Assembly: GCA_017613135.1 (NCBI GenBank)
Contig: JAGAEN010000007.1
Location: 22,670-86,669, forward strand
Direction of reading: 5' to 3'
Length of the DNA stretch: 64,000 bases
DNA from: Candidatus Saccharimonadota bacterium
Lineage (GTDB): Bacteria; Patescibacteriota; Saccharimonadia; Saccharimonadales; Saccharimonadaceae
The notes beneath the pieces were generated by a model. That model worked only from the letters and a program-made list of their open reading frames with translations, was not told the DNA's origin and ran no database searches. Shown here one piece after another: positions 14,097 to 62,997 of this stretch (within the stretch, counting starts at the first letter, position 1; every line of letters begins with the position of its first letter). The translations under genes were made by a program, and so were the position numbers.

Positions 14097-14173
14097 GTGC
14101 CCGTAGCTCAGTTGGATAGAGCGTCAGCTTGCGGAGCTGAAGGTCACACGTTCGAATCGTGCCGGGCATACCA
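14097..14173 (+). tRNA. tRNA-Arg (GCG)
   Basis: A 77-nt tRNA. The acceptor is GTGCCCG/CGGGCAT (first pair G-U), discriminator A, encoded CCA. The anticodon stem TCAGC/GCTGA holds TTGCGGA, giving anticodon GCG (Arg, CGC/CGU). T arm ACACGTTCGAATCGTGC. A terminator follows, and a weak 3'-end look-alike lies at about 14235-14255. Confidence 0.93.
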
Positions 14174-14185
14174 AAATCGAAAAAA

Positions 14186-14208
14186 CGAGAGCTTGCTCTC
14201 GGTTTTTT
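14186..14208 (+). terminator. Terminator of tRNA-Arg(GCG)
   Basis: Stem CGAGAGC/GCTCTCG with a 2-nt loop, then TTTTTT. The stem extends outward through A/T pairs (AAATC...GATTT). Confidence 0.9.
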
Positions 14209-14249
14209 GATTTTGTGTATCGCCTGGCTAGATCCCCATCGTACCCGGC

Positions 14250-14276
14250 AAAAAAATGCCCTGGTATAGCCAGGGC
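14250..14276 (-). terminator. Terminator of the 14289-14558 gene
   Basis: On the minus strand GCCCTGG/CCAGGGC (5-nt loop) is followed by seven T. It lies 12 nt past the stop of the small membrane gene. A wider inverted pair CCTGGCTA (14223-14230)/TAGCCAGG (14267-14274) overlaps it and may act as an alternative fold. Confidence 0.85.
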
Positions 14277-14288
14277 TAAGGAAATACT

Positions 14289-14558
14289 TTAATGATTAAA
14301 ATGTCTGAATTCGCACACCGTACGTGTTATGTATACACATACAACATACAAAATACATCTCACTGCGTATCCATCATAAGTGGGTATTAAAAGTCCAATG
14401 GGCGCAGCGACTACCAGGATACACCCGGCAGCAAGTAGCAGACCACGTTTGAAGGATTTCTGGTTCAGATTCATAATTTTTTCGATTGATAAAAACATTA
14501 CTAGACCGCCAAATATCCCCAAAACGATAGGGGCAACATAGTTTAAAACAAACCTCAT
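14289..14558 (-). CDS. Small membrane protein, three hydrophobic segments
   Basis: 89 residues with hydrophobic segments at about 6-24, 39-60 and 66-80. The chosen ATG has AGGAGG 9 nt upstream; an earlier ATG 5 nt before is closed at once by TGA. No family recognised. It resembles the 13547 and 13756 products in size and topology, and its promoter is almost the same, so the three probably work together. Confidence 0.65.
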   Translation of the reverse strand: MRFVLNYVAPIVLGIFGGLVMFLSIEKIMNLNQKSFKRGLLLAAGCILVVAAPIGLLIPTYDGYAVRCILYVVCVYITRTVCEFRHFNH

Positions 14559-15624: not shown

Positions 15625-18471
15625 ATGAAATTTTCAAGTAGTTACGAACCCAATCAATTTGAACCAGATATTTATGCCGCATGGGAAGCCGCCGGCGTCT
15701 TCAATCCTACCGTCTCTACCGTCCCCGTCGACGCCGACGGAAACGGCCACGACGACCGGTTGGAATCTGAAGAGAATGCTTTTTCGGAGCATGTTTGGCG
15801 ACGGGCCAAACACGGAGCAAGCGAGCCCCGTAACGACGGGAGCGAGCTTGCGTTCCGAAAAAGCATTTCTTCAGATTCCACCTACTCTATCGTCATGCCA
15901 CCCCCGAACGCCAACGGCAATCTCCATATCGGTCACGGCCTTACTGTTGCTCTTGAAGATTCTCTTACACGCTACTACAGATTAAAAGGCAAATCCACCT
16001 GGTACATCCCTGGCGCCGACCACGCTGGTTTTGAAACCTGGGTCGTTTATGAACGCGCCCTTGAGGCCAGCGGCCACACCCGTTTTGAATATGATCGCAA
16101 CGAGCTCTACGCCCGTGTTTGGGATTTTGTAGCCCAGCAACGCGGCAATATGGAAGTCCAACTCCGCGCCCTTGGCGCCTCCTGCGCCTGGAACGACCTT
16201 ACCTTCACTCTGGATGAAAACGTCGTTGACCGTGTCTACACTACTTTTGAAAAAATGTGGAACGACGGCCTGATTTACAGAGGCAAAAAACTTGTCAATT
16301 ATTGCCCTAAGCACCAGACCGCTTTCGCCGACATCGAAGTCGAACACCAAGATGAGCCCGGTACCCTTTGGGACATTGCTTATGATGATATCATAGTTTC
16401 TACTACTAGACCCGAAACCTTGTTCGGCGATGTGGCCGTTGCCGTCAATCCAAATGACAACCGCTACCAAGACCGCATCGGCAAAAAAGTCCACTTGCCT
16501 CTCACTGATCGCGAAATCGAAATCATCGCCGATGAACACGCCGACCCTGAGTATGGCACCGGCGCTGTTAAGATTACGCCCGCTCACGATTTTGACGATT
16601 TCGAAGTTGGTGAACGCCACCATCTCCCCCAGATTCAGGTTATTTCTGAAGAAGGCCGAATGATTAACGTGCCAGATAAATACTACGGTCTTACCACCGC
16701 CGAATGTCGCAAGCAAGTCCTAAAAGACCTAAAGGAACAAGGCCTCTTAAAGGGTGAAAAGAAAATCACCCACTCTGTAGCGCACTGTTACAAATGTGGC
16801 ACCGTTATCGAGCCAATGTTAAAAGAGCAGTGGTTTATTGATGTCAAAACTCTGGCAAAAACCGCCATCGAGCATTTAAACAATAATGAAATCAAATTCT
16901 ATCCCGAGAGCAAGCAAAAAGTCCTCATCAACTATCTTGAAAACTTAAAAGACTGGAACATCTCCCGCCAAATCCCTTGGGGCATCGCCATCCCGATGTT
17001 TAAGAAAATTGACGACGAAGCCACCGACGAACCAGAATGGATTTTTGACAAAAGAACCAATTTGAAAGAAATTGAAAAATCCGGCGTGAAATATATCAGA
17101 GACGAAGACACTTTTGACACCTGGTTCTCTTCCAGCCATTGGCCTATTGTTTGTACCGACTGGTCAGATGAGAATCCCACCCCTTATTACCCATTAAATG
17201 TCATGGAAACTGGCGTTGATCTAATTTTTGCCTGGGTCTCCCGGATGATTATGATGGGACTCTATGTTACCGGCGAAGTGCCATTTAAAGAAGTTTATTT
17301 CCACGGCCTCGTCCTTGATGAACATGGCAAAAAAATGAGTAAAAGCAAAGGTAATGTGATTAATCCAATGGAATTAGTGGTAAAATATGGCTCCGACGCC
17401 TTCCGCCTCGGCATTCTCCGCGGTCGCTCCGCCGGCATGAACCAAGCCTTCTCTGAAAACTCCGTCATCTCCGGCCGAAATCTAGCCAACAAACTCTGGA
17501 ACATCTCCCGTCTTGTCCAATCCATGGTCGACGAAGATGGAGAGGCTGACGCGAGCTTTCATTTTGCAAGCCCGAGCGAAAATCGAGAAGTCGAGTCGAG
17601 CCGAGTACCGGAAAGTACCGGGCGCAGGCCCGATTCGACGACGAGATTTTTGCCCGGCGCGCAGCAAAGCGCAAGCGAGCGCAGCCTCTCCATTTACACC
17701 ACCGACAACATGGGCGAAGACTGGATTTGCCGCGAAATAAACGACTGTCTCGACCAAGTCGAGAACGACATGAAAACCTATCGTTTCGCCGAAGCCGTCG
17801 AAGTACTCTATACTACCATTTGGGATAAATACGCCGACTGGTTCCTCGAATCCCAAAAACTGTACAAGAATGTCCCACTTCTAAAAACCACCCTCGAATC
17901 TCTTCTCATCGCCATTCATCCTTTCGCCCCATTTGTTACTGAAGCTATCTGGCAAAATCTATCCTGGACCAAAGGCTTTATTATTACGGCAAAATGGCCA
18001 GAAAGACTAGAATACGACCCAATAAGCGCCGAGAATTTCGAAAACATAAGAATTATCGTGTCTGAGATAAGAAGCACCTTGCAGAGCCTCCCAGGCGCCA
18101 ATAACAGCAAAAAATATGGTCTAATGTATGATAACGACGCCCTAGTGGAGGATAATTCCCTCCTTATTAAGACGCTTGCCAAAGTTCCGACCATTAATCC
18201 CCTAAATGGCTCCCCGAGAGGCCTAAGAATCGCCCTTGCGAGCCACGAACTCTATCTTGACGTCCCCGAAAAAGTCATCAAGGATTACAAAGACGCACTC
18301 ACTGAAAAAATCCTCTCTGTCGGCCGTGAGCTAGATGCCCTTAACCTTCGCATGAGTAATCCAAACTATGTCGAACGCGCCCCAGAGCATCTAGTCAAAG
18401 AAACCAGGAATCAAATTAAAGAAAAAGAATCACTCATCTCCCGCCTAAAAAACCAACTCACCCTAACCTAG
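15625..18471 (+). CDS. valS: Valyl-tRNA synthetase with two palindromic inserts
   Basis: 948 residues. Class I synthetase charging tRNA-Val. HIGH motif as LHIGH near residue 99; KMSKS as KKMSKSKGN near residue 571. The editing domain lies between, and a tRNA-binding and coiled-coil C-terminus ends in LKNQLTLT. Two stretches do not belong to the family. Residues about 46-85 come from the family A palindromic element at 15761-15880. Residues about 638-690 come from a second element at 17537-17693. Both keep the frame open and fall at domain edges. Leaderless: TATAAT 15613-15618, 6 nt before ATG. Confidence 0.96.
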   Translation: MKFSSSYEPNQFEPDIYAAWEAAGVFNPTVSTVPVDADGNGHDDRLESEENAFSEHVWRRAKHGASEPRNDGSELAFRKSISSDSTYSIVMPPPNANGNLHIGHGLTVALEDSLTRYYRLKGKSTWYIPGADHAGFETWVVYERALEASGHTRFEYDRNELYARVWDFVAQQRGNMEVQLRALGASCAWNDLTFTLDENVVDRVYTTFEKMWNDGLIYRGKKLVNYCPKHQTAFADIEVEHQDEPGTLWDIAYDDIIVSTTRPETLFGDVAVAVNPNDNRYQDRIGKKVHLPLTDREIEIIADEHADPEYGTGAVKITPAHDFDDFEVGERHHLPQIQVISEEGRMINVPDKYYGLTTAECRKQVLKDLKEQGLLKGEKKITHSVAHCYKCGTVIEPMLKEQWFIDVKTLAKTAIEHLNNNEIKFYPESKQKVLINYLENLKDWNISRQIPWGIAIPMFKKIDDEATDEPEWIFDKRTNLKEIEKSGVKYIRDEDTFDTWFSSSHWPIVCTDWSDENPTPYYPLNVMETGVDLIFAWVSRMIMMGLYVTGEVPFKEVYFHGLVLDEHGKKMSKSKGNVINPMELVVKYGSDAFRLGILRGRSAGMNQAFSENSVISGRNLANKLWNISRLVQSMVDEDGEADASFHFASPSENREVESSRVPESTGRRPDSTTRFLPGAQQSASERSLSIYTTDNMGEDWICREINDCLDQVENDMKTYRFAEAVEVLYTTIWDKYADWFLESQKLYKNVPLLKTTLESLLIAIHPFAPFVTEAIWQNLSWTKGFIITAKWPERLEYDPISAENFENIRIIVSEIRSTLQSLPGANNSKKYGLMYDNDALVEDNSLLIKTLAKVPTINPLNGSPRGLRIALASHELYLDVPEKVIKDYKDALTEKILSVGRELDALNLRMSNPNYVERAPEHLVKETRNQIKEKESLISRLKNQLTLT
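15761..15880 (+). repeat. Palindromic element family A, copy in valS
   Basis: 120 bp. The outer arms 15761-15788 and 15854-15880 are complementary over 27 bp with one extra G on the left. The constant core holds hairpin GTTTGGC-GACGG-GCCAAAC and a second arm GCAAGC...GCTTGC around CCCGT-GACG-ACGGG. The valS frame reads through as EHVWRRAKHG. Core subtype 1, shared with the ATPase copy. Confidence 0.9.
17537..17693 (+). repeat. Second palindromic insert in valS (different family)
   Basis: 157 bp, GC-rich, with perfect outer arms ATGGAGAGGCTG (17537-17548) and CAGCCTCTCCAT (17682-17693). Inner pairing includes GCGAAAATC with GATTTTTGC, GTCGA.TCG.GCC with GGCCCGATTCGAC, and a CGGGC-GCAG-GCCCG hairpin. 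The encoded residues (rich in S, R, E, P) interrupt ValRS between NISRLVQSMVDEDG and IYTTDNMGEDW. The core differs from family A. Confidence 0.8.
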
Positions 18472-21332: not shown

Positions 21333-22277
21333 ATGAACATGGAGGAACTAGAACGAGTGCGCGAAAAATACGCCAAAAAACTGTTGATTTTCATCAGCAT
21401 AGGTTTTGGTATCTTTGCGTTAGCGATAATAATTGGTATGCTTGCCTTTACCAATATTAATTCAAAGTTACTTTCAATGGTTACGCCGATGGCGATAACT
21501 GGTTTTTTTATGGTTGTCGCTATAATGATAGCAGCCTATCTATTAACTAGAAAAGAAGCTGCCGCTTACCGCAAGATTTACAAAGCCTACTTTGTCGAAC
21601 GAAACCTCCGCCAGAGCTTCACCGACATCTACTACAACCACGAGCAGGGAATGCCAAAAGAGGTTTTAAAATCCACGGATATGATGCGGACAGGGGACGT
21701 TTATCGCTCTAACGATTTCACCTCTGGCAAATACAAAGACGTCGCCTTTTCCCAGGCCGACGTCGAAATTCAAGAAGAGCACACCGATTCTGATGGCGAT
21801 ACCACCTACGTCACCATTTTCAAAGGTCGCTGGATGGTTTTTGAATTTCCCAAATCCTTCAATTTTCGCCTTGAAGTCGTCCAAAAATGGTTCAACGCCC
21901 ACAAAAAACCCAGCAAAGACAAAACCTTAAATCGCAAAATCGAAAAAATCTCCACCGAATCGCCTACCTTCAATAAAAAATTCAACGTCTACGCCGAAGA
22001 TGGTTTTGAGGCCTACTACATTCTCGACCCCGCCTTTATTGACCATATTGAGAAGTTAAGTGAAGCCTACAAAGGCAAGCTTCTTCTCTGTTTTGTCGAT
22101 AACAGGCTCCACGTCGGCCTGAATGACAAAAAAGACGCCTTCGAACCACCTCACCCATTTAAGCCCATTGACGAAAAAACCGAAAATCAAAAAGTCCATG
22201 CCGACATCAAGACCATCACTGATTTCGTCGACTTTCTAAAACTCGACCGCAAATTATTCAAGGACACCGCCAAATGA
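21333..22277 (+). CDS. DUF3137 membrane protein
   Basis: 314 residues with two N-terminal helices (about 15-37 and 47-70), then a DUF3137-type cytoplasmic domain (TGDVYRSNDFTSGKYKDVAFSQADVEIQEE...FKGRWMVFEF). Function unknown. TACAAT (21321-21326) ends 6 nt before the first ATG, which favours MNMEEL as the start. The stop overlaps the ATPase start (ATGA), so the two are probably coupled. Confidence 0.82.
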   Translation: MNMEELERVREKYAKKLLIFISIGFGIFALAIIIGMLAFTNINSKLLSMVTPMAITGFFMVVAIMIAAYLLTRKEAAAYRKIYKAYFVERNLRQSFTDIYYNHEQGMPKEVLKSTDMMRTGDVYRSNDFTSGKYKDVAFSQADVEIQEEHTDSDGDTTYVTIFKGRWMVFEFPKSFNFRLEVVQKWFNAHKKPSKDKTLNRKIEKISTESPTFNKKFNVYAEDGFEAYYILDPAFIDHIEKLSEAYKGKLLLCFVDNRLHVGLNDKKDAFEPPHPFKPIDEKTENQKVHADIKTITDFVDFLKLDRKLFKDTAK

Positions 22278-24643
22278 ATCATTCCATCTGGAAAATTATT
22301 GCCAAGAATACTTTTACGCTATTTAATTTCGTCAACCTCGTCCTCGCTCTAATGGTGGCATTTGTCGGCAGTTACAAAAATATGCTATTTATCACCATCG
22401 CCATTGCGAACACCTTAATCAGTATCGTAAATGAAATTCGCGCCAAAAAAATTGTCGATAAACTCCGTCTCCTCTCCGAGCAGCGTCCCACGGTGATTAG
22501 AAACGGTAAATCCTACCAAGTCGCCCCCGAAGACATCAAAAAAGGTGATATCACCGTATTAAGCCTCGGCGACCAGATAATGTATGACAGTGTCATACAG
22601 TCTGGCACCATCGAAGTCAATGAAGCCTTCATCACCGGCGAGCAAGACAACATTGTCAAAAAAGCAGGCGATAAACTCACCTCTGGCAGTTTCGTAGTCT
22701 CCGGCACCGCTGAGGCAGCAGTCGAGCACATCGGCGCCGATAATTTTGTCACCAAATTGCAAAATGAAGCCACCACGATAAAGACTGCCGATAGCAAACT
22801 CTTCAAATTGATGAATAACATCGTTAAATACATCAGTTATTCTCTTATTCCTATTGGTGCACTTCTCCTCTGGGCCAGATTTCGCACCGAGCCAAATGTT
22901 ACCGACGCCATCACTAGCACCGTCGCTGCTCTCATTAATATGATTCCAGAGGGCCTCATTCTCTTGACCAGCACCGTACTCGCTCTCGCTACCATCCGAC
23001 TTGGCCGGCGGAAAGTTCTCGTCCAGGACCTCTATTCTATCGAAACTCTCGCCCGCGTCGACACCATCTGTCTCGATAAGACCGGTACCCTCACCACTGG
23101 TAATATGACCGTCCATGACGCTTTGCTGCCAGACGGCACGCCAATAAATATCAAAGCCCCCACCACCTCAGCCGAAAAATCGCTTCTAAGGGCCTTAAAA
23201 GCCATTCTAAGCCATCAAACCGCTAAAAACCAAACCACTAGCGCTTTAGAAAAAAAGTTCCTCCAAGGCGCCAAAAATGCAGCCACAGACGAAATTAAAA
23301 AAATTGTCGACATCATCCCATTTAGCTCCGACCGCAAGTATTCCGGCATCGTCACAAATAACGCCACCTACCTAATGGGCGCCATCGAATTCCTTACCAA
23401 CGACAAAGCGCTTATCGATAAGGTCAAATCCTTCTCCACCGATTACCGCACCTTAGCAATCGTAGAGCACGAAAACAACTATCATTTGAGGAGCATATTT
23501 GGCGACGGGCCAAATACGGAGCAAGCGAGCCCCGTGACGACGGGCGCGAGCTTGCGTTCCGAAAATGATGGTTGTTTTCGTGTTACCAAGCTTCTAGGTA
23601 TCGTCCGTCTCGAAGACGAACTTCGCCCTACAGCAGGGAAGATCATCAAGTATTTTTATGATAACGACATCAATGTGAAGATTATTTCCGGTGATGACCT
23701 TGAAACCGTCACCAAAATCTCCGAGAATGTAGGCGTAAATGACTTAAGAGGTATTGATCTCTCTACGATTAGTCGCAAGAATTATACCAAGCTAGTAGAA
23801 GATTACAGCATTTTAACTCGTGTCACACCCGCCGAGAAAAAAGAGTTAATCAAAGCTTTTAAAAAGCAAGGTAAAACCGTCGCTATGACCGGCGATGGTG
23901 TCAACGACATTTTGGCGATGAAAGAGGCCGACGTCTCACTTGCCATCGGTGAAGGCAGCGATGCTGCCCGTCGCGCCTCAAAACTCGTTCTTTTAAACTC
24001 CGACTTCGATGCCGTCCCAAGCATTATTGACGAAGGTCGCCAATCTATCAACAACCTCGAACGCTCCACCGCCCTATTTCTTGCCAAGACCGTCTACGCC
24101 AGCATTCTCGCCGTCATTTTCGTCATTCTCCCCTTAAGCTACCCCTTTAGCCCTATCGAAATGTCTCTTCTAAACTTCGCCTGCATTGGCTTCCCTGGCC
24201 TAGTTCTTTCTCTAGAGAAAAACACCGACCGCATTAAAAATCGCTTCACGCGGAACATCATCGAATATTCCTTCCCAATCGGCATCACTGTCTCTATCTG
24301 TATGGCTGTCCTTTCTGCTCTTGCCCATATCAACGAATTCACCCGCCCAGAGCTCACCACCGCTTCGGTTTTTATTACCTTTACCATTGATCTAATTCTC
24401 ATCTATTGGATTTCTAGGCCGCTAAACAAACTCCGTGCCGGCCTTTTACTCACTATCATTGGCATCATGGCTGCCGCTTTCGGTATCCCCCTTATCCGCG
24501 ACTTCTTCGAATTCACTTTCCTAACCAGTAACGGTCTCATCATTATGCTCGCCATCATCGGCGCCGGCTTCCTCTTCTTTAATCTTCTTCGTCTACTCCT
24601 CAAGCGCTCACTAAACCACATCTTCACCCGCTTGCATTTCTAA
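22274..24643 (+). CDS. Cation-transporting P-type ATPase with palindromic insert
   Basis: 789 residues. The E1-E2 ATPase carries ITGE (about 121), IPEGLILLTS in helix 4, the phosphorylation site DKTGTLT (about 268) and the hinge TGDGVNDILAMKEADVS (about 538). It lacks N-terminal metal-binding domains and resembles CtpE-like putative Ca2+ or other cation pumps. Residues about 400-437 (RSIFGDGPNTEQASP and what follows) come from the family A element at 23468-23582, placed in the nucleotide-binding domain just before LLGIVRLEDELRP. Confidence 0.9.
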   Translation: MNHSIWKIIAKNTFTLFNFVNLVLALMVAFVGSYKNMLFITIAIANTLISIVNEIRAKKIVDKLRLLSEQRPTVIRNGKSYQVAPEDIKKGDITVLSLGDQIMYDSVIQSGTIEVNEAFITGEQDNIVKKAGDKLTSGSFVVSGTAEAAVEHIGADNFVTKLQNEATTIKTADSKLFKLMNNIVKYISYSLIPIGALLLWARFRTEPNVTDAITSTVAALINMIPEGLILLTSTVLALATIRLGRRKVLVQDLYSIETLARVDTICLDKTGTLTTGNMTVHDALLPDGTPINIKAPTTSAEKSLLRALKAILSHQTAKNQTTSALEKKFLQGAKNAATDEIKKIVDIIPFSSDRKYSGIVTNNATYLMGAIEFLTNDKALIDKVKSFSTDYRTLAIVEHENNYHLRSIFGDGPNTEQASPVTTGASLRSENDGCFRVTKLLGIVRLEDELRPTAGKIIKYFYDNDINVKIISGDDLETVTKISENVGVNDLRGIDLSTISRKNYTKLVEDYSILTRVTPAEKKELIKAFKKQGKTVAMTGDGVNDILAMKEADVSLAIGEGSDAARRASKLVLLNSDFDAVPSIIDEGRQSINNLERSTALFLAKTVYASILAVIFVILPLSYPFSPIEMSLLNFACIGFPGLVLSLEKNTDRIKNRFTRNIIEYSFPIGITVSICMAVLSALAHINEFTRPELTTASVFITFTIDLILIYWISRPLNKLRAGLLLTIIGIMAAAFGIPLIRDFFEFTFLTSNGLIIMLAIIGAGFLFFNLLRLLLKRSLNHIFTRLHF
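23468..23582 (+). repeat. Palindromic element family A, copy in P-type ATPase
   Basis: 115 bp. The arms 23468-23492 and 23557-23582 pair over about 24 bp with one T-G and a GA/TC mismatch. The core belongs to subtype 1. Hairpin 1 is ATTTGGC/GCCAAAT where the other copies have GTTTGGC/GCCAAAC, a compensated base pair. It is read in a different frame from valS and argS. Confidence 0.9.
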
Positions 24644-25749: not shown

Positions 25750-26928
25750 CTATTTATCAATCGCTATCCTAGGATAAATATTGAGGGTGTATGGATTCGT
25801 CGGTTTCACTCCACTCAAAATCTCAAAAAAGCATGCTGCTGCCACCATCGCCCCATTATCGCCAGATAGCGAAGGGACAGGGAAGAAGGCGTCTGGTAGC
25901 GCCTTACGAAGCGACTGATTAGCGCTTACTCCCCCAGCCACTGCTACAGATTTTACCTTAGGATACATATCAAGCGCAAAATTTATTTTCTCAGTCAGGA
26001 TCTCCACAGCGGTCTTCTGGAATGATGCCGCAAAATCATGCACTTGTTGCTCGCTAAGTAGCCCCGCCAGTTTATGTGAAGGATACGAAATAGGCACTCC
26101 AACCTCCTTCTGCACCGCCCGGAGCACAGCGGTCTTCAACCCAGAAAATGAAAAATCAAGCCCTTCGACCTTAGGGTGTGGCAAACGATATTTGTCAGGA
26201 TTACCCCCCTTTGCAGCCTTCGCAATCGATGGCCCACCTGGATAGGGAAGCCCTAGGATCTTCGCCACCTTATCAAAACACTCCCCCACCGCATCGTCAT
26301 GTGTCGTCCCTACAATCTCAAACTGATTATGCCCCCTCATATACAAAATCTGCGTATGTCCTCCCGACACGACCAATGCCAACAAAGGGAAAGCTGGTAT
26401 CTGACTTTTCTGAAGCATAGAAAACTGATTATTCTGTTTGGAATCTAATGGACGCTTCTCTGAGGAGCATGTTTGGCGACGGGCCAAACACGGAGCGACC
26501 GAAGCCCGTGACGACGGGCCTGAGGGAGCGTTCCGAAGAGAAGTGTCCTTAGATTCAAAAGAGTTTAGCCAATTCGCATACACATGTGACTTCAAATGAT
26601 GCACGGCATAGAGAGGCTTATCATGTAGTATCGCAAGCGTCCTTGCGGTCAAAGTCCCAATCAGTAAGGATCCCAGAAGGCCCGGCGCGTGTGTCACCGC
26701 TATTGCGTCAATTTCATCCCAAGACACCGAAGCATCCGACAGCGCCTTATTCACCACCGGCATCATCGCCTCAAGGTGTGACCTTGCCGCCACCTCTGGT
26801 ATCACCCCACCATATTCCGCAAAAATATCAATCTGCGAGACCACCACGCTCGACAAAATCTCCCGCCCGTCTCTTACCACTGCGGCCGCCGTCTCGTCAC
26901 AACTTGTCTCAATTCCCAGTATTAACAT
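25750..26928 (-). CDS. tsaD: tRNA A37 threonylcarbamoyltransferase TsaD with palindromic insert
   Basis: 392 residues, against about 335-345 usual. TsaD makes t6A in tRNAs reading ANN codons. N-terminus LILGIETSCDETAAAVV; metal-binding HHLKSHVYA; VVSGGHTQIL; SGLKTAVLRA; C-terminal DNGAMVAAA. The extra length is residues about 124-163, encoded by the family A element at 26437-26559, here opposite in orientation to the gene. The insert follows HVYANWLNSF, away from the metal site. Leaderless: TATAAT 6 nt before ATG. Confidence 0.95.
   Translation of the reverse strand: MLILGIETSCDETAAAVVRDGREILSSVVVSQIDIFAEYGGVIPEVAARSHLEAMMPVVNKALSDASVSWDEIDAIAVTHAPGLLGSLLIGTLTARTLAILHDKPLYAVHHLKSHVYANWLNSFESKDTSLRNAPSGPSSRASVAPCLARRQTCSSEKRPLDSKQNNQFSMLQKSQIPAFPLLALVVSGGHTQILYMRGHNQFEIVGTTHDDAVGECFDKVAKILGLPYPGGPSIAKAAKGGNPDKYRLPHPKVEGLDFSFSGLKTAVLRAVQKEVGVPISYPSHKLAGLLSEQQVHDFAASFQKTAVEILTEKINFALDMYPKVKSVAVAGGVSANQSLRKALPDAFFPVPSLSGDNGAMVAAACFFEILSGVKPTNPYTLNIYPRIAIDK
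26437..26559 (+). repeat. Palindromic element family A, copy in tsaD (reverse relative to gene)
   Basis: 123 bp. The arms 26437-26466 and 26531-26559 pair over about 25 bp with two single-base bulges and one mismatch. Core subtype 2 (GCCCGT-GACG-ACGGGC), nearly identical to the argS copies. The host gene is on the other strand, so the element is translated in an antisense frame (APSGPSSRASVAPCLA) and is still open. Confidence 0.9.
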
Positions 26929-38957: not shown

Positions 38958-38971
38958 ACAATAGAGCAATA

Positions 38972-39056
38972 ATATCAAGAAGGAGCGAGGGAACGGCCCG
39001 TTGACCTCCTGCCAACCTAGTTAAATCCAAGGTGGTAATTCCGCCCAGAAAGGAAA
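38972..39056 (+). promoter_or_regulatory. SAM riboswitch (S-box family) upstream of metK
   Basis: The leader contains the SAM-I/SAM-IV core in order: TATCAAGA, GAGGGAACGGCCCG, TGACCTCCTGCCAACC, and AAGGTGGTAATTCC. Classical S-box conserved blocks are GAGGGA, GGCCC, GGCAACC and GGTGCTAATTCC, so a few positions differ (TGCCAACC, GGTGGTAATTCC). The metK Shine-Dalgarno (AAAGGAAAG) sits just past the aptamer and the gap is too short for a terminator, so control of translation is likely. Bound SAM should turn off SAM synthesis. Confidence 0.85.
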
Positions 39057-39059
39057 GAT

Positions 39060-40025
39060 ATGTTCTATCGAACTGCGGAGAGCGTTTCTCCGAAACACCC
39101 AGACAAACTTTGTGACCAAATCAGCGACGCGATTTTGGATGCTTACTTAGAAAAAGACCCCGACGCTCGTGTCGCCGCTGAGACTTGTGGTGGTCACGGT
39201 GTAGTTTTTGTCACCGGCGAAATCACATCTACTGCCGACGATATCGATATCGAAAAAATCGTTCACCGCATCGCCGGCGACGATGTCGAGGTTCACACCA
39301 AAATCGTCAAACAATCTCCCGAAATTGCCCAAGGCGTCGATACCGGTGGTGCCGGCGACCAGGGAATTATGATTGGCTACGCTACCGACGAGACTCCCGA
39401 AATGCTCCCACTTGAAGTCGTATTATCCCGCAAACTAAACGAATATATTTATGCCAAGCACCCTTACGACGGCAAAACTCAAGTCACCATCGCCCCAGAC
39501 GGTACCATCGCCTCCATTGTCGCCAGTTTCCAAAACGTCAGCCAAGCCGAACTAAAAGAACTCGTTGAAGAGTTTATCAAGGACAATAATCTAAAAGGCG
39601 CTCTCGAACTTCACTTAAACCCCGCCGGCGACTGGAATCAAGGCGGCTTTGACGCCGATACTGGCCTTACCGGTCGCAAACTCATTGTCGACAATTACGG
39701 CCCCCGCATCGCTATCGGCGGTGGCTGCTATTCCGGCAAAGACGCCACCAAGGTCGACCGCTCCGCCGCTTATATGGCTAGAAAAATCGCCGTGGATTAT
39801 CTAAGAAACCGCCACGCCCACGAAGTCCTGGTCCGCCTTGCTTACGCCATCGGCAAAGCCGAGCCTCTCGAAAAGACCGTCATTATCGACGGCCAGCCCG
39901 AAGAAATCGAAGGCTACGACCTCACTCCACGCGGCATCATCAACGCGCTAGATTTGAAGCGCCCCATCTACGAAGAGACCGCCCGCTACGGTCACTATGG
40001 CCACGCCTTCCCGTGGGACAAATAA
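39060..40025 (+). CDS. metK: S-adenosylmethionine synthetase (compact form)
   Basis: 321 residues, against about 380-400 usual, with deletions in peripheral loops. It makes SAM from methionine and ATP. Motifs: ESVSPKHPDKLCDQISDAILDA, GAGDQGIMIGYATDET (ATP-binding), GGCYSGKDATKVDRSAAYMAR (P-loop-like) and RHAHEVLVRLAYAIGKAEPL. The start is the ATG at 39060 behind AAGGAAAG. Its product feeds the several methyltransferases of this window. Confidence 0.95.
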   Translation: MFYRTAESVSPKHPDKLCDQISDAILDAYLEKDPDARVAAETCGGHGVVFVTGEITSTADDIDIEKIVHRIAGDDVEVHTKIVKQSPEIAQGVDTGGAGDQGIMIGYATDETPEMLPLEVVLSRKLNEYIYAKHPYDGKTQVTIAPDGTIASIVASFQNVSQAELKELVEEFIKDNNLKGALELHLNPAGDWNQGGFDADTGLTGRKLIVDNYGPRIAIGGGCYSGKDATKVDRSAAYMARKIAVDYLRNRHAHEVLVRLAYAIGKAEPLEKTVIIDGQPEEIEGYDLTPRGIINALDLKRPIYEETARYGHYGHAFPWDK

Positions 40026-40088
40026 TTTTGTGTTTTTAGAATTTATATGCTACAATTAAAGTGCTTAACTTTAATTTTGGAGCAGGTA

Positions 40089-42044
40089 GTGCAAATAACA
40101 AAATCATTAAAATCATCAAATACATTAGAAAAAGACCGTATATTATACATAATGGTTCTTTCATTAATCTCATTAACTACTATTTCGGGCCTAGTTTTGT
40201 CTTCGCCCATTCTTTCTGCCCACGCTGATGATTCTGTTGTCACCACTACCGCCGTCACCGTCTCCGAATCTTGCTCTATGACTGCCACGGTCGGCACACC
40301 ACATTCTGCTAGCTTGCCAAATGGCACCTATTCCGGCACTAGTTATCCAAATGGTGTTGGTACTACTACTTTAAGAGCCTTCTGTAATGACCGTCAAGGC
40401 TTTGCCATCTACGCTATTGGCTATACCGGTGATGAATACGGTAATAACAAACTCCATTCAAATACTTTAGGCAATGATTATGATATTAATACTGGTATTT
40501 ATACTTCTGGTTCTACTACTAACTCTACCTGGTCCATGAAACTATCTAGTGTAGCCGGAGACTTTGCCCCTACTATAACTGATGGTACTAATAATACAGA
40601 AAACTTCACCACCTGGCACGTAGTACCTAGTGAATATACCAAAGTAGCCTACAGAACTACCGGTACTGATATCCTAGTAGGTGGCTCGGGCACTGGTTCT
40701 TCAGTAGAAGTGACTTATGATGCTTATATCTCCTCCACCCAGCCTGCCGGCACCTATGTAGGACAAGTAAAATATACCCTAGTCCACCCAAGCACTGCTG
40801 GTAAACCTGTGACACCACTTAAGGATTCGGATTGTCCAGCCGGCTATGTCTGCTATGCGCCTAACACATCGGACATTGAAGGCTCCATGTCTTCACTCGG
40901 CTCTATTTCTTCTTCACCTACTGCTGGTAAAATCAGTGTGGGCACTTCCGCCACCACCATTAACCTTATCGCACCAAACTACAAACGAGAAGGTTATGGC
41001 TTTGCTGGTTGGAGTACAGATTTTACTACTACAAATGCTAGTACTATTTACGGTCCAAATGAAACTCTCACGGTACCTTCTGCCACTCTCGCCACAAAGG
41101 GTATGATACTCTACCCAGTCTGGGTAGCCTCTTCTGGCACTCTTCAAGAGTTCTCCTGTGCAAGCTCTAGCTTAACTCCAGCAACCTATAATAGTACGAC
41201 TGGTAAAGTCTCTGCTACCCTTTCTTCCATAACTGCCCTTACTGATTCTCGTGACGGAAATGTCTACGCCGTAGCCAAGCTTGCAGATGGCTATTGCTGG
41301 ATGATAGAAAACCTTCGCCTAGATGCCAATCATTCTACGGATGGTAGCTTGGCACAAGGCTATGATACAGGCTTTATCGGACTACCAGATTCAGAAGATG
41401 CAAACTTTGATACAAATGGTACAGCAAACAATCTATACAGCACTGGTAACTATCGTACGATGCCACGCTATAATAATAACAATATTAAATTCGGCGGAAA
41501 AAATGCTTCTGGTACAGATTTGGTAGCCGGATATAATACAAACACCAATACAGCACAATGGTATAGCTATGGCAACTACTACTCCTGGCCAGCAGCTAAA
41601 GCCACCATTACAAACTACGAATCATATTCAGCAACTGATGCAGTATCCACTTCCATCTGCCCAGCTGGGTGGATACTCCCACTAGGCTACCAATCCACTG
41701 GTGCCTTAGATGATAATGAACAAAGCAGTACTTGGCGTGTACGTGGCTTCTCCTACCTAGACCGCATAATGGGTGGTACAGGACAAAATAGTAGCACTAA
41801 TTCAGTTACCAATGCATCAAATAGTGCTAACTGGCGCTCATTCCCGAACAACTTTGTTTACTCCGGGTACTGGGATGGTGCCCAGGCGAGCACTCGTAGC
41901 AGCAGCGGCTTCTATTGGTCGTCTTCTGCGAACAGTAACGGCCGCGCCTACGGCCTGGGCCTCAGCAGTAGCGTCGTCTACCCCGGGACGAATTACTACG
42001 TCAAGTACTACGGATTCACAGTCCGCTGCGTGGCTGGCTCTTAG
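40089..42044 (+). CDS. Secreted FISUMP surface protein, paralog of the 29524 product
   Basis: About 651 residues from the GTG at 40089, chosen because GGAG lies 6 nt upstream and the upstream ATG overlaps the promoter. A signal helix (about 20-42, ending LSAHADD) is followed by a beta-rich domain with two cysteines, one InlB-type repeat (YGFAGWSTDF...YGPNETL...LYPVW, about 40990-41130) and one C-terminal FISUMP domain (41150-42040). The last 40 codons (41907-42029) are GC-rich, mostly end in C or T, and look like a hypervariable region. A -10 TACAAT lies at 40051-40056. Confidence 0.8.
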   Translation: MQITKSLKSSNTLEKDRILYIMVLSLISLTTISGLVLSSPILSAHADDSVVTTTAVTVSESCSMTATVGTPHSASLPNGTYSGTSYPNGVGTTTLRAFCNDRQGFAIYAIGYTGDEYGNNKLHSNTLGNDYDINTGIYTSGSTTNSTWSMKLSSVAGDFAPTITDGTNNTENFTTWHVVPSEYTKVAYRTTGTDILVGGSGTGSSVEVTYDAYISSTQPAGTYVGQVKYTLVHPSTAGKPVTPLKDSDCPAGYVCYAPNTSDIEGSMSSLGSISSSPTAGKISVGTSATTINLIAPNYKREGYGFAGWSTDFTTTNASTIYGPNETLTVPSATLATKGMILYPVWVASSGTLQEFSCASSSLTPATYNSTTGKVSATLSSITALTDSRDGNVYAVAKLADGYCWMIENLRLDANHSTDGSLAQGYDTGFIGLPDSEDANFDTNGTANNLYSTGNYRTMPRYNNNNIKFGGKNASGTDLVAGYNTNTNTAQWYSYGNYYSWPAAKATITNYESYSATDAVSTSICPAGWILPLGYQSTGALDDNEQSSTWRVRGFSYLDRIMGGTGQNSSTNSVTNASNSANWRSFPNNFVYSGYWDGAQASTRSSSGFYWSSSANSNGRAYGLGLSSSVVYPGTNYYVKYYGFTVRCVAGS

Positions 42045-43208: not shown

Positions 43209-43766
43209 ATGTACGGACCAACAGATCTCAAGAAAAATACCCTTATCACCTTGGATGGCCAGCCGTACAAGGTGGTAGAATACTCACAAAAAGTGATGGG
43301 CCGTGGCGGCTCCATCGTAAATGTCAAAGTGAAGAATCTCATCACTGGCGCTCTACTTCCGAAGACTTTCAAAGGCCAGGAGAAAATTGAGCCAGCCGAA
43401 GTTACCACGAAAAAAGTCCAATATCTTTATCGTGACGACGAGAAGTTTTACTTTATGGACCCAGAATCTTTCGAACAATACGAGCTCAGTGCTGATATGG
43501 TCGGTGACCAAAAAGATTTTATGAAAGATGGCGATGAAATGGAAATCCAATTCTATAACGGCACTCCAATCAATCTCCAGCTTCCAAAGAATCTTTGGCT
43601 CACTGTGACATATACTGAAACGGCAGTCAAAGGCGATACCACCAGCTCCGTGATGAAAGATGCAACTCTCGAAACCGGCGTCGTGGTGAAGGTCCCGGCC
43701 TTCATTAAAGAAGGCGACACCGTCTCAATCGACACTGATACTTATGAGTACCGTGGACGTAAGTAG
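43209..43766 (+). CDS. efp: Elongation factor P
   Basis: 185 residues in three beta-barrel domains. EF-P relieves ribosome stalling at polyproline. The modification loop reads KKNTLITLDGQPYKVVEYSQKVMGRGGSIV in two parts around the loop tip (QKVMGRGG), where other EF-Ps carry Lys or Arg; no modifying gene is in the window. The C-terminal EF-P signature region is KEGDTVSIDTDTYEYRGRK. The last 23 bp overlap the next gene. Confidence 0.95.
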   Translation: MYGPTDLKKNTLITLDGQPYKVVEYSQKVMGRGGSIVNVKVKNLITGALLPKTFKGQEKIEPAEVTTKKVQYLYRDDEKFYFMDPESFEQYELSADMVGDQKDFMKDGDEMEIQFYNGTPINLQLPKNLWLTVTYTETAVKGDTTSSVMKDATLETGVVVKVPAFIKEGDTVSIDTDTYEYRGRK

Positions 43767-44406
43767 GGGTTATCTCAAAATTGAAGGTGCTGCTCGCGCC
43801 TTCAATTTTGACTTCAAAGATAAAGTCGTGCTCGACATCGGCTCCTCGACCGGCGGTTTCACTGAGTATGCCTTGGCCCACGGTGCCAAGAAAGTCATCG
43901 CAGTAGAGAAGGGCTCTCACCAAATGAAGGCCCCTCTCCGCTTCGATCCCCGCATCGATCTCCACGAAAAAACCGACATCTTCGACGTGATAGCGGCAGG
44001 CCAAACAGCAACTGTAACGTGTCCTAAGGGACATAAGGACTTGGCCAGAGCGGCTTGGGAGCTGTTGCCCGAAGGGCACGCTACAGTTGCTGTTTGGCCT
44101 ATGCCTGATATCATACTTGCTGATGTCTCTTTTTTAAGTCTCACCAAGATTCTGTCCTATGCGAAGAAGCATTTGGCGGGGAAGCATACCGAGTTTTTAG
44201 TGATGCTAAAGCCTCAATTTGAAGCCCGCCCCGACCAATTACACAGTGGTGTAGTGAAAAACGAAACCATTCGCCGCGAGATTATTAAGCAATTTGAATA
44301 CTGGTTAAAGCAAAACGGCTATCTTATTATTAAAAAACACGACAACGAACTCCACGGCAAAAATGGAAATATTGAAAGATTTTATAATTTAGGTCTTGCA
44401 AAATAA
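43744..44406 (+). CDS. TlyA-type rRNA 2'-O-methyltransferase, no S4 domain, with palindromic insert
   Basis: 220 residues. VSRGYLKIEGAARAF, SAM loop VVLDIGSSTGGFTEYAL, then ILADVSFLSLTKIL and LVMLKPQFEA match TlyA, which methylates ribose in 16S and 23S rRNA. The N-terminal S4 domain of full-length TlyA (about 60 residues) is absent; the start lies inside efp. Residues about 85-119 (GQTATVTCPKGH...) are encoded by a palindrome at 43998-44100 and are not part of the family. Confidence 0.85.
   Translation: MSTVDVSRGYLKIEGAARAFNFDFKDKVVLDIGSSTGGFTEYALAHGAKKVIAVEKGSHQMKAPLRFDPRIDLHEKTDIFDVIAAGQTATVTCPKGHKDLARAAWELLPEGHATVAVWPMPDIILADVSFLSLTKILSYAKKHLAGKHTEFLVMLKPQFEARPDQLHSGVVKNETIRREIIKQFEYWLKQNGYLIIKKHDNELHGKNGNIERFYNLGLAK
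43998..44100 (+). repeat. Palindromic insert in tlyA (third type)
   Basis: 103 bp with 24-bp arms (43998-44021 and 44077-44100) differing at one pair. The core has hairpins TGTCC-TAAG-GGACA and GCCC-GAA-GGGC. Same principle as family A (long stem, two hairpins, open frame) but an unrelated core. Confidence 0.85.
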
Positions 44407-56020: not shown

Positions 56021-56160
56021 AGATAACGAGCCATCACGATCGAGGGACATAAAGAAAAAATCTGCTATATGCAGATTTTTTCGCCGAAGGGGCGAAGCGA
56101 CGTGATATAATCGAAGATTATCACGTCGCGAAGCTCCCGAGACGAGATGGCCCGTTATCT
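56021..56160. repeat. Composite palindrome between ackA and xer
   Basis: 140 bp. The outer arms 56021-56048 and 56133-56160 are imperfect inverted copies (AGATAACG.GCCATC.CG); the right arm includes the last codons and stop of ackA. Inside are three hairpins: AAAAAATCTGC-TATAT-GCAGATTTTTT (a likely ackA terminator on the minus strand), TCGCC/GGCGA, and GCGACGTGATA...TATCACGTCGC. Same style as the in-gene elements, here at a gene's end. Confidence 0.7.
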
Positions 56161-61079: not shown

Positions 61080-61154
61080 TGGTGCGGGTACAGGGAGTCG
61101 GACCCTGATCTCATCCTTGGGAAGGATACATAATAGCCGCTATACGATACCCGC
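61080..61154 (-). tRNA. tRNA-Gly (CCC)
   Basis: A 75-nt tRNA. Acceptor GCGGGTA/TACCCGC, discriminator A, encoded CCA. Anticodon stem TATCC/GGATG with loop TTCCCAA gives anticodon CCC (Gly, GGG). T arm CAGGGTCCGACTCCCTG. Confidence 0.93.
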
Positions 61155-61209
61155 GACTACCCCTATTATACCATATTTTATAAAAAGATATGATATAATA
61201 ATATTAACT

Positions 61210-62997
61210 ATGGAAGAAATCAAGGCTACTCTGAAAAAAGCAATAAAAAATTTATACAACCTTGATTTTGACCCCGAAATCACTCCCGCGCCAGCCAACA
61301 TTGACGCCGACTACTCCACCAACGCTCCCCTAAAACTTGCCAAAGAATTGCACAAATCCCCGATGGAAATTGCAGGGGCACTTGAAGAAGATGCTTTCTC
61401 GGAGCATGTTTGGCGACGGGCCAAACACGAAGCGACCGAAGCCCGTGACGACGGGCCTGAGGGAGCGGTCCGAGAAAGCATTTCTTCAAGTGTTACTCCT
61501 CCCGGCTTCCTCAATTTCACTCTATCTGACAATTATTTAAAAGAATCCATAAATAATTTATACAACAATTTTGATGCCAGTATTAAATCAGATGCATATG
61601 AAGGCAAGACAGTCATTTGCGAGTTTAGCGACCCAAACCCATTTAAAGTCCTCCACGTCGGCCATCTTTATACTAGCATCGTCGGCGACTCCATCGGCCG
61701 TCTCTTTGAATACGCCGGCGCTAGGGTCATTAGAGCGAATTTCGGCGGCGACGTCGGCCTTCACGTCGCAAAGACTATGTACGCCTTACTCCAAAAAGAT
61801 ACCACCGACCTAAAGATCGAAGACATCGCGAAGTGTTACATCGAAGGCACCGCTCTCTACGACACCGACGAAAAAGCAAAATCAGAAATCACCAAACTTA
61901 ACAAAGAAATCTATCGAATCAATGCTGAAAATCTCCACGATACCGACCTTGCAAAAGTTTATTGGCAAGGCAGGGAACTGTCCTATGAATATTTCGACCA
62001 ATTTTATAGCACCATCGGCGTCAAATTCGACAAGTATTATCCAGAATCCACCGTTGCTGCCCTTGGTCTAAAAACCGTCAAAGAGCAACTAGAAAAAGGC
62101 GTCTACGAAATGTCCGACGGCGCCGTCATCTTCAATGGCGAAAAATTCGGCCTCCACACCCGCGTTTTCATCAACAAAGAGGGCGTTCCCACCTACGAAA
62201 CCAAAGACGTCGGCCTCATTTTCACCAAATGGCAAGACTGGCATTTCGATAAATCTGTTGTCATCACCGGCTCCGAGCAACTTGATTATATGAAAGTAGT
62301 TCTAAAATCTATCGAACAATATGCTCCCGACCTAGTCAAAAAGACTGCTCACCTAACTCACGGCCTAGTCAAACTCCCCGGTGGCGTCAAAATGTCCTCG
62401 AGAAAGGGCAATTTCTTAAAAGCCGTCGATGTTCTTGATATGGTAAAAGACGAACTTAAAAAAGAATACGATTCCACCGACGACAAAGTTTCCCTCGCCG
62501 CCACCAAATACGCCTTTTTGAAATACAAAATGGGCGGTAACATCATTTTTGACCCCAAAGAGTCCGTCAAAATGACCGGCAACTCCGGCCCGTATCTGCT
62601 ATACGCTTGCGTGAGAGCCAAGAAAATCTTGGCATCTGTAGGTAATACCTTCGAGGAGCATGTTTGGCGACGGGCCAAACACGGAGCGACCGAAGCCCGT
62701 GACGACGGGCCTGAGGGAGCGTTCCGAGAAGGTATTACTACAGATGCCGAACACAACCTTATGCTAAAACTCCTAGAATACAAAAGTCTATTACAAGATG
62801 CCGTCTCCGAAATGGCACCGCATAAATTGGCGAATTATTTGTATGAACTAGCGCAAGAGTTTTCACGCTTTTACGAAAACTGCCCAGTGGCTGGAGCGAA
62901 AGAAGAAGCCGAGCGCGCCAAACTCGTTCAGGTATATTTAACCACGATGACCCACGGTCTCGGCCTTCTCGGCATCAACATCCCGGAGGAAATGTAA
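61210..62997 (+). CDS. argS: Arginyl-tRNA synthetase with two palindromic inserts
   Basis: 595 residues from the ATG at 61210 (TATAAT at 61194-61199, 10 nt upstream). Class I synthetase charging tRNA-Arg. HIGH motif FKVLHVGHLYTS (about 148); KMSKS as KMSSRKGNF (about 394); C-terminal DALR-type domain. Family A elements add residues about 57-95 between the N-terminal domain and the catalytic core, and about 475-513 at the start of the anticodon-binding domain. In both places the frame stays open with nearly the same peptide (EHVWRRAKH). Confidence 0.96.
   Translation: MEEIKATLKKAIKNLYNLDFDPEITPAPANIDADYSTNAPLKLAKELHKSPMEIAGALEEDAFSEHVWRRAKHEATEARDDGPEGAVRESISSSVTPPGFLNFTLSDNYLKESINNLYNNFDASIKSDAYEGKTVICEFSDPNPFKVLHVGHLYTSIVGDSIGRLFEYAGARVIRANFGGDVGLHVAKTMYALLQKDTTDLKIEDIAKCYIEGTALYDTDEKAKSEITKLNKEIYRINAENLHDTDLAKVYWQGRELSYEYFDQFYSTIGVKFDKYYPESTVAALGLKTVKEQLEKGVYEMSDGAVIFNGEKFGLHTRVFINKEGVPTYETKDVGLIFTKWQDWHFDKSVVITGSEQLDYMKVVLKSIEQYAPDLVKKTAHLTHGLVKLPGGVKMSSRKGNFLKAVDVLDMVKDELKKEYDSTDDKVSLAATKYAFLKYKMGGNIIFDPKESVKMTGNSGPYLLYACVRAKKILASVGNTFEEHVWRRAKHGATEARDDGPEGAFREGITTDAEHNLMLKLLEYKSLLQDAVSEMAPHKLANYLYELAQEFSRFYENCPVAGAKEEAERAKLVQVYLTTMTHGLGLLGINIPEEM
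61379..61492 (+). repeat. Palindromic element family A, argS copy 1
   Basis: 114 bp. The arms 61379-61403 and 61469-61492 pair over 24 bp with a single extra G on the left. Core subtype 2. Its outer arm is like the valS one near the core (GAAGA..ATGCTTT.TCGGA). Confidence 0.92.
62631..62748 (+). repeat. Palindromic element family A, argS copy 2
   Basis: 118 bp. The arms 62631-62657 and 62722-62748 pair over about 24 bp with one extra G and a GA/TC mismatch next to the core. The core is almost identical to the tsaD copy. The outer arm sequence is unlike that of copy 1. Confidence 0.92.

What the first reader, a model, noticed from the sequence alone, without database searches (positions are those of the whole stretch)
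15761..15880. Family A palindromic element inserted in frame in conserved enzymes (type copy in valS)
A core of about 70 bp recurs five times in the window, always inside a conserved protein gene and always leaving the frame open: valS, P-type ATPase (23468-23582), tsaD (26437-26559), argS (61379-61492 and 62631-62748). Each copy folds into a long outer stem with two inner hairpins. The outer stem of 21-27 bp differs from site to site, yet its two arms always match each other. Simple insertion of a fixed sequence cannot explain this: either the element copies adjacent host DNA in inverted form on insertion, or each site has evolved pairing. Rickettsia palindromic elements (RPE) are the nearest known idea; I do not recognise this core.
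Basis: partly seen in the sequence, partly recalled or inferred. Interest (0 to 1): 0.95.

Follow-up and report, generated by a model that had tools for sequence, protein, structure and literature searches.

The report
Roaming in-frame palindromes of Saccharibacteria
A DNA palindrome of about 110 bases sits in frame inside housekeeping genes of one genus of tiny gut bacteria, is present in one and absent from another nearly identical copy of the same enzyme, and its two arms change together over evolution; it is likely a small mobile element whose arms are probably re-matched by copying errors during DNA replication.

Summary
A 73-bp core with two hairpins lies inside a longer stem in valS, a P-type ATPase gene, tsaD and argS (twice), and at 17 places in the genome. 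Arms pair with their own partner (score at least 10 in 79 of 106 elements; 1.05% of 2000 swapped pairs). It is not an ordinary loop: a ValS identical at 904 of 913 residues lacks a net 35 residues, a near-identical ArgS lacks 29, and valS site 1 is filled in 12 of 81 species with at least 10 changes on the tree. Copying of neighbouring host DNA is not supported in valS, where the empty protein has neither arm; in argS the outer arm codons do remain in the empty protein. The arms evolve in concert: at orthologous sites 114 double changes kept pairing, 29 broke it. Best reading: a non-autonomous mobile coding palindrome, like Rickettsia palindromic elements in habit, with arms probably homogenised by template switching. 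The core model matched 21 of 147 genomes of the class, all in this genus. No mover was identified. A G.T excess on the element's own strand leaves room for selection on a single-stranded form. New variant of a known kind.

The parts
15761..15880 (+). Type copy in valS: arms 15761-15788 and 15854-15880, core 15786-15858
   Evidence: absent from protein P0122, 904 of 913 residues identical
23468..23582 (+). Copy in P-type ATPase gene; core 23490-23562
26434..26563 (+). Copy in tsaD, antisense to the gene; core 26464-26536, identical over 73 bases to the core at 62655-62727
61379..61492 (+). First copy in argS (site 1); core 61401-61473
   Evidence: 29 residues absent from protein P0002
62631..62748 (+). 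Second copy in argS (site 2); core 62655-62727
   Evidence: covariation across five species
15625..18471 (+). Host gene valS (valine--tRNA ligase)
22274..24643 (+). Host gene, P-type ATPase
25750..26928 (-). Host gene tsaD
61117..62997 (+). Host gene argS (arginine--tRNA ligase)
17545..17697 (+). Long palindrome without this core at valS site 3 (approximate limits)
   Evidence: the same peptide, but for one residue, is in P0122
43998..44100 (+). Long palindrome without this core inside the tlyA frame 43744-44403

Best explanation
This is a GC-rich palindrome of about 110 bp that sits in frame in housekeeping genes of one genus of Saccharibacteria, is present or absent at the same place in near-identical ValS and ArgS proteins, and has arms that change together; it is likely a non-autonomous mobile element whose arms are probably kept complementary by template switching during DNA replication. 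Shown: the anatomy (a 73-bp core with an 8-pair and an 11-pair hairpin inside a stem of about 20-25 bp), 17 core matches in the genome, open host frames, presence/absence differences between near-identical proteins, repeated filling of the same valS sites, and concerted change of the arms. Inferred: that the palindrome inserts whole, arms included; that mismatches in the arms are mended by copying one arm from the other (quasipalindrome template switching); that insertions survive only where the frame stays open and a hydrophilic loop is tolerated; that elements are lost by deletion. The enzyme or process that moves it is unknown.
For: Mobility: own ValS and P0122, 904 of 913 aligned residues identical, differ by one insert (37 residues in place of DT), and the next relative P0123 is also empty; own ArgS and P0002 have two differences before alignment column 499 apart from a 29-residue insert at site 1; valS site 1 filled in 12 of 81 species, at least 10 changes on the tree, 6 of the 12 matching the core model; ValS site 1 lengths bimodal, 86 short and 30 long of 116 proteins scored, 4 of 120 missed; the tsaD and argS site 2 cores identical over 73 bases. 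Palindromy: z<=-4 in 47 of 68 valS inserts, 0 of 68 controls. Concerted arms: 79 of 106 elements score at least 10 with their own arm, 1.05% of 2000 swapped pairs; at orthologous sites 114 double changes kept pairing, 29 broke it (chance would keep about one in three), 101 were single; argS site 2 in five species: 15 of 45 pairs changed on both sides against 5.8 in shuffles and 0-2 when slid. DNA rather than mRNA level: in coding-strand orientation G.T 23 and A.C 27 against 1263 Watson-Crick pairs; in the 18-row core alignment 11 of 24 pairs have double changes and one pair has one-sided standard changes. Arms travel: L024 (valS site 1) and L017 (valS site 3) share 19 of the 23 left-arm bases next to the core. 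Tolerance: 98 of 106 elements in frames of at least 150 codons; sense peptides in use are hydrophilic (mean GRAVY -1.2; whole hosts -0.3).
Against: No mover: Y1/RAYT-type transposase absent from this genome and from 96 of 99 genus genomes, reverse transcriptase absent from this genome. Among 11 own copies compared, the closest core to the strain-polymorphic valS copy differs at 4 of 73 bases, so that copy may have come by allele exchange. The empty ArgS P0002 keeps the outermost arm codons and may be a deletion, since 65 of 114 ArgS proteins scored are long at this site. P0122 and P0002 are known as proteins only. Mean core distance between sites of one genome is 0.147, at one site between genomes 0.133, between both 0.182: no sign of recent bursts. 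On the element's own strand G.T outnumber A.C 42 to 18, which plain DNA copying does not predict, and five of 45 pairs in the argS site 2 set show one-sided G.U-type changes. Of 244 changes at orthologous sites 130 are single or broken. 21 of 68 valS inserts do not reach z<=-4.
Confidence: 0.55

Rival explanations
1. The element moves, and is kept palindromic by selection, as a folded single strand (ssDNA or RNA of its own strand) that an unidentified enzyme recognises, in the manner of REP or (recalled) integron attC hairpins; arm pairing is a mobility trait, not a by-product of replication.
For: On the element strand G.T exceeds A.C 42 to 18 (p 0.003; 25 elements against 8, p 0.005), also where the element is antisense to its gene (11 to 0) or outside a frame (8 to 2); a G.T pair in the inner stem is kept in 16 of 18 copies.
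Against: The excess rests on weaker-scoring members: 9 to 4 at 80 bits or more, 9 to 6 at 60 or more, 29 to 15 at 40 or more. G.T are about 2.5% of pairs (34 of 1342 in-frame cells). No RAYT-type transposase in this genome.
Confidence: 0.22
2. The hairpin is a functional mRNA structure (regulation, processing or stability) of the host genes, so pairing is kept by selection on the message.
For: Strong covariation; 11 of 14 in-frame copies of this genome lie in genes acting on tRNA; 87 of 98 in-frame copies are in sense orientation, and these alone have G.T 23, A.C 16.
Against: No wobble bias over all in-frame copies in message orientation (G.T 23, A.C 27; 8 and 22 in an earlier set chosen by pairing); antisense copies pair as often (9 of 11 against 64 of 87 score at least 10); presence differs between near-identical proteins; the sense bias can be put down to the hydrophilic sense peptides.
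Confidence: 0.1
3. On insertion the element copies adjacent host DNA in inverted form, making a new arm.
For: Arms are site-specific beyond about 18 nt; the empty valS site of L055 keeps the right arm of L038 and L050; the empty ArgS P0002 keeps the outermost arm codons on both sides.
Against: Neither arm is in the empty ValS P0122; filled L029 and empty L021 share no arm by eye; arms of different sites can be alike (L024 and L017, 19 of 23 bases). L055 is sister to the filled L050 (support 93) with filled L038 next, so a deletion is simpler.
Confidence: 0.07
4. The insert is not translated (an intron or a bypassing element).
For: Palindromic elements in Magnusiomyces mitochondrial genes are bypassed (as told in the discussion of PMC6649704).
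Against: 98 of 106 elements lie in frames that stay open across them, in several frames and both orientations; the two strain differences are 35 and 29 whole codons. Splicing or bypassing would not need this.
Confidence: 0.04
5. Ordinary variable protein loops.
For: Of 17 valS inserts with z above -3, 11 are site 3 inserts of one clade without a clear palindrome.
Against: Bimodal lengths, palindromy of most inserts, one core in unrelated genes.
Confidence: 0.01

Closest known systems
Rickettsia palindromic elements (RPE), especially RPE-1 and RPE-4/6/7, also reported from Wolbachia
   Same: Palindromes of 100-150 bp, some in ORFs without destroying the frame; several families; different families near the same place in orthologues; hosts of the same kind (tRNA ribosyltransferase-isomerase, a phenylalanyl-tRNA synthetase subunit, DNA polymerase III, an excinuclease subunit) (passages of PMC3767692 and PMC10969869).
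   Different: Other phylum, and no RPE sequence was compared here; arms here differ from copy to copy and change in concert, whereas RPE were found to lose repeat identity with time (PMC6649704 citing Claverie and Ogata; the original was not seen).
Coding palindromes of Nematomorpha mitochondria
   Same: Long inverted repeats inside genes, gained and lost, possibly kept by repeat conversion or template switching (abstract and discussion of PMC6649704).
   Different: There both arms encode conserved host residues and nearly all long repeats are perfect; here a recurrent core sits in unrelated genes and the insert is extra.
GTAG/CGTC-tagged REPs (RAYT-associated or not)
   Same: Small palindromes, some inside replication, repair and pseudouridine synthase genes; the CGTC type lacks a dedicated transposase (passages of PMC3733652).
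   Different: Those are 20-40 bp hairpins with an unpaired GTAG or CGTC end; here about 110 bp with two hairpins in a long stem and no such tag at the hairpin borders.
Template switching between inverted repeats in yeast genes
   Same: Homogenises repeat arms in coding DNA (abstract of PMC8604942).
   Different: Short scattered repeats, not a dispersed family.

Membership tests
Rickettsia palindromic elements (RPE) | Palindrome of about 100-150 bp | tested here: met
   window copies span 114-130 bp
Rickettsia palindromic elements (RPE) | In frame inside ORFs of unrelated genes | tested here: met
   98 of 106 in frames of at least 150 codons; hosts
Rickettsia palindromic elements (RPE) | Found in Rickettsia or Wolbachia | tested here: not met
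   This family is in Saccharibacteria; 21 of 147 class genomes match, all in one genus; other phyla not searched
Rickettsia palindromic elements (RPE) | Sequence similarity to an RPE family | not tested
   RPE sequences were not fetched
REP with RAYT transposase | RAYT (Y1_Tnp) gene in the genome | tested here: not met
   none in this genome, 3 of 99 genus genomes
REP (GTAG or CGTC tagged) | 20-40 bp hairpin with unpaired GTAG or CGTC at one end | tested here: not met
   core and hairpin borders read; in the core consensus GACG (CGTC on the other strand) occurs only within the hairpins
MITE | Target-site duplication and related autonomous transposon | tested here: inconclusive
   No direct repeat seen at the borders by eye; no conspecific empty-site DNA available; no general transposon search made
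Nematomorph-type coding palindrome | Both arms encode conserved host residues | tested here: not met
   arm peptides vary between species and are absent from the empty ValS; the empty ArgS keeps the outermost arm codons
Rfam structured RNA | Match to a described family | tested here: not met
   no family at gathering score over the copies; for the valS copy best E 0.061 to a microRNA model, 21 bits against a cut-off of 96

The most novel reading that the evidence does not exclude
A self-mending coding parasite: a mobile palindrome that lives inside essential genes, encodes harmless hydrophilic loops in both of its open sense frames, and escapes decay because replication can rewrite one arm from the other, so that its sequence drifts while the hairpin, which may be its own single-stranded means of moving, stays intact.
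Probability: 0.33. Interest if true: 0.86.

Novelty: new variant of a known kind. Interest (0 to 1): 0.68.

Why it matters
In the papers I saw, long in-frame palindromic elements are described above all from Rickettsia and Wolbachia, with shorter REPs in genes of other bacteria. Here is an independent case in a distant phylum, with presence/absence between near-identical proteins, many filled orthologous sites to compare (45 of 81 species at one valS site, several families together) and arms that evolve in concert. That makes two questions testable: how such elements persist in essential genes, and whether template switching drives protein evolution in bacteria. It also warns that loops of 30-40 residues in aminoacyl-tRNA synthetases of these bacteria may be parasites, not adaptations.

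Tried and rejected
Wobble tests: an early set of 40 palindromes chosen by pairing gave G.T 8 and A.C 22 in coding orientation; the core-anchored set gave 23 and 27, or 28 and 34 over two more columns; sense copies alone 23 and 16; on the element's own strand 42 and 18. All are kept; the last is the reason for the first rival.

A gapless palindrome scan missed most copies because of bulges and was replaced. valS site 3 was dropped from the protein length table because its pattern matched only 21 of 120 proteins; the argS site 2 split is crude; tsaD was scored in 92 of 120 (24 short, 68 long). Of 111 model hits, 2 at contig edges and 3 duplicates were dropped. The comparisons summed share species and are not independent. 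The 25 copies were filtered by flanks only and still held orthologous pairs (for instance argS site 2 and iscS), so the conservation of arms to about nt 18 may be too high.

Idea that elements target existing small hairpins: 52 empty valS sites had a slight excess of short inverted repeats (9 of 52 at 6 bp or more against 7% of controls, p 0.014), which could equally be footprints; left open. Homogenisation among copies of one genome: no clear sign. Open frames do not explain the sense bias (41 copies at 60 bits or more: open frames 61 sense, 82 antisense; used 36 and 4). Enrichment of tRNA-acting hosts was not tested against a background. Papers on palindromes in Saccharibacteria: none of this kind among those listed (15 of 26; 15 of 57; 15 of 1,699), open-licence papers only.

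Full report
What is there. The window is part of a 728,709-bp Saccharibacteria genome in 19 contigs; its valS relatives are mostly ruminant-gut Saccharibacteria, among them Candidatus Nanosyncoccus alces. Each has a 73-bp core, GGAGCAT...GTTCCGA or nearly so, that folds into an 8-pair hairpin and an 11-pair hairpin, inside a stem of some 20-25 bp with mostly a GA/GA internal loop and a 1-nt bulge. Fourteen of 15 copies checked in this genome lie in open frames of at least 150 codons: valS, a P-type ATPase gene, tsaD (antisense), argS twice, a tatD-like gene, miaA, queA, ileS twice, a dus-like gene, truB, obgE and leuS. A covariance model of the core finds 17 places in this genome and matches in 21 of 147 genomes of the class, all 21 in this genus (1 of 78 genera); the search used stricter filters that lose weak matches. 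A BLAST of the core matched 63 of 99 genus genomes, this one included. In 26 hosts from other genomes (best hit of each), the genes are argS, ileS, tsaD, truB, gatA, obgE, rlmD, iscS-like, polA, uvrB, topA, a RarA-like ATPase, P-type ATPases and a methyltransferase family.

Arms. With the model I collected 111 hits in the fetched loci, 106 after removing duplicates and edges. Scoring the arms outward from the core, without having selected for pairing, the own-arm score is at least 10 in 79 of 106; of 2000 swapped pairs 1.05% reach that. Arm positions next to the core share a consensus for 7-9 nt, weaker conservation reaches about 18 nt (perhaps inflated by orthologues left in the set), and beyond that arms are site-specific. 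At orthologous sites in different species arms differ in sequence but stay paired: summed over pairwise comparisons, 373 pairs are the same, 114 changed on both sides and still pair, 29 changed on both sides and do not, 101 changed on one side. For argS site 2 in five species 15 of 45 pairs have changes on both sides (5.8 in shuffles; 0-2 when one arm is slid), 96.4% of cells pair, and five pairs show one-sided changes of G.U type.

Mobility. P0122 is identical to the window's ValS at 904 of 913 aligned residues but reads LE-DT-STYS where the window has LE-(37 residues)-STYS; P0123, the next relative, is also empty. P0002 matches the window's ArgS with two differences before alignment column 499 but lacks 29 residues at site 1; at site 2 it has the same left arm up to FEEH, then another element and a divergent stretch, so a recombination junction may fall within the element. 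A TsaD relative (336 of 376 residues identical) carries a 13-residue insert nested in the element. Across 81 species valS site 1 is filled in 12 with at least 10 changes on the tree, site 2 in 11 with 8, site 3 in 45 with 21. Six of the 12 site 1 inserts match the core model, six do not. Of 68 valS inserts 47 fold with z<=-4 and none of 68 matched controls does; of the 17 with z above -3, 11 are site 3 inserts of one clade. Two species 94.6% identical in valS have different inserts at site 3, one of them folding weakly.

Origin of the arms. If the element copied host flanks, an empty allele should hold one arm. The empty ValS P0122 holds neither, and L021, 90% identical to the filled L029, shows by eye no arm at two sites. 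L055 keeps the right arm found in L038 and L050 but groups with L050 on the tree, so a deletion is simpler. The empty ArgS P0002 keeps ALEE and SISSSV, which the outermost 11 or so bp of both arms encode in the window: either host sequence or a deletion remnant, and I cannot tell without its DNA. L024 and L017, filled at different valS sites, share 19 of 23 left-arm bases. I infer that the palindrome mostly arrives whole.

What keeps the arms matched. In coding-strand orientation arm mismatches are G.T 23, A.C 27, other 29, against 1263 Watson-Crick pairs; selection on the message should favour G.U. In the 18-row core alignment 11 of 24 pairs show double changes while one pair shows one-sided standard changes. 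Joint change with few intermediates fits copying of one arm from the other, the template switching found in yeast genes (abstract of PMC8604942) and discussed for nematomorph mitochondria (discussion of PMC6649704). Against a purely replicative account stands a G.T excess on the element's own strand, 42 to 18, also in antisense copies (11 to 0) and copies outside frames (8 to 2); among copies of 80 bits or more it is 9 to 4, of 60 or more 9 to 6. A single-stranded intermediate under selection therefore remains a serious rival.

Tolerance. Of 98 in-frame copies 87 are sense and 11 antisense, although antisense frames are open at least as often. The two usable sense frames of the consensus encode strongly hydrophilic peptides (GRAVY -1.8 and -1.2; antisense +0.2 to -0.7), so survivors may simply be those that make a harmless loop.

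Movers. No Y1/RAYT transposase in this genome, 3 of 99 in the genus; no reverse transcriptase in this genome, 40 of 60 in the genus. The mover is unknown; other transposase families were not searched.

Comparison. In habit this is what Rickettsia palindromic elements are: 100-150 bp, in frame, several families, different families near the same place in orthologues, and hosts of the same kind (passages of PMC3767692 and PMC10969869). Relationship by descent was not tested. It differs by the concerted change of its arms and by presence/absence between near-identical proteins. It is not a tagged REP and has no Rfam match. Hence: new variant of a known kind.

Noticed in passing
window 43998-44100: Long palindrome without this core, centred on GGACATAAGGACTTGGCC, inside the tlyA (rRNA methyltransferase) frame; by eye a similar centre occurs at valS site 3 of L029.
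   Followed up: partly
L007:1500-1665 and L117:1445-1550: truB copies with extra sequence, in L007 a further hairpin, nested inside the second hairpin of the element; TsaD protein P0242 likewise has a nested 13-residue insert.
   Followed up: partly
P0002, from FEEH of argS site 2 to EMAPHK: A divergent stretch that begins within the element: the palindrome may be a recombination hot spot.
   Followed up: no
window 41826-42025: Strongly structured end of ORF 40047-42044 that recalls (from memory, not searched) a diversity-generating retroelement target; this genome has no reverse transcriptase match but 40 of 60 genus genomes do.
   Followed up: no
window 38969-39064: SAM riboswitch at the start of ORF 39060-40025.
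   Followed up: no
window 14101-14300 and 56026-56175: Two further strongly folding stretches, the first beginning in a tRNA gene.
   Followed up: no
valS loci L039, L031, L038, L050: Cores in the opposite orientation to those of other species at the same valS site, as spacer inversion by template switching would give; independent insertion would do too.
   Followed up: no
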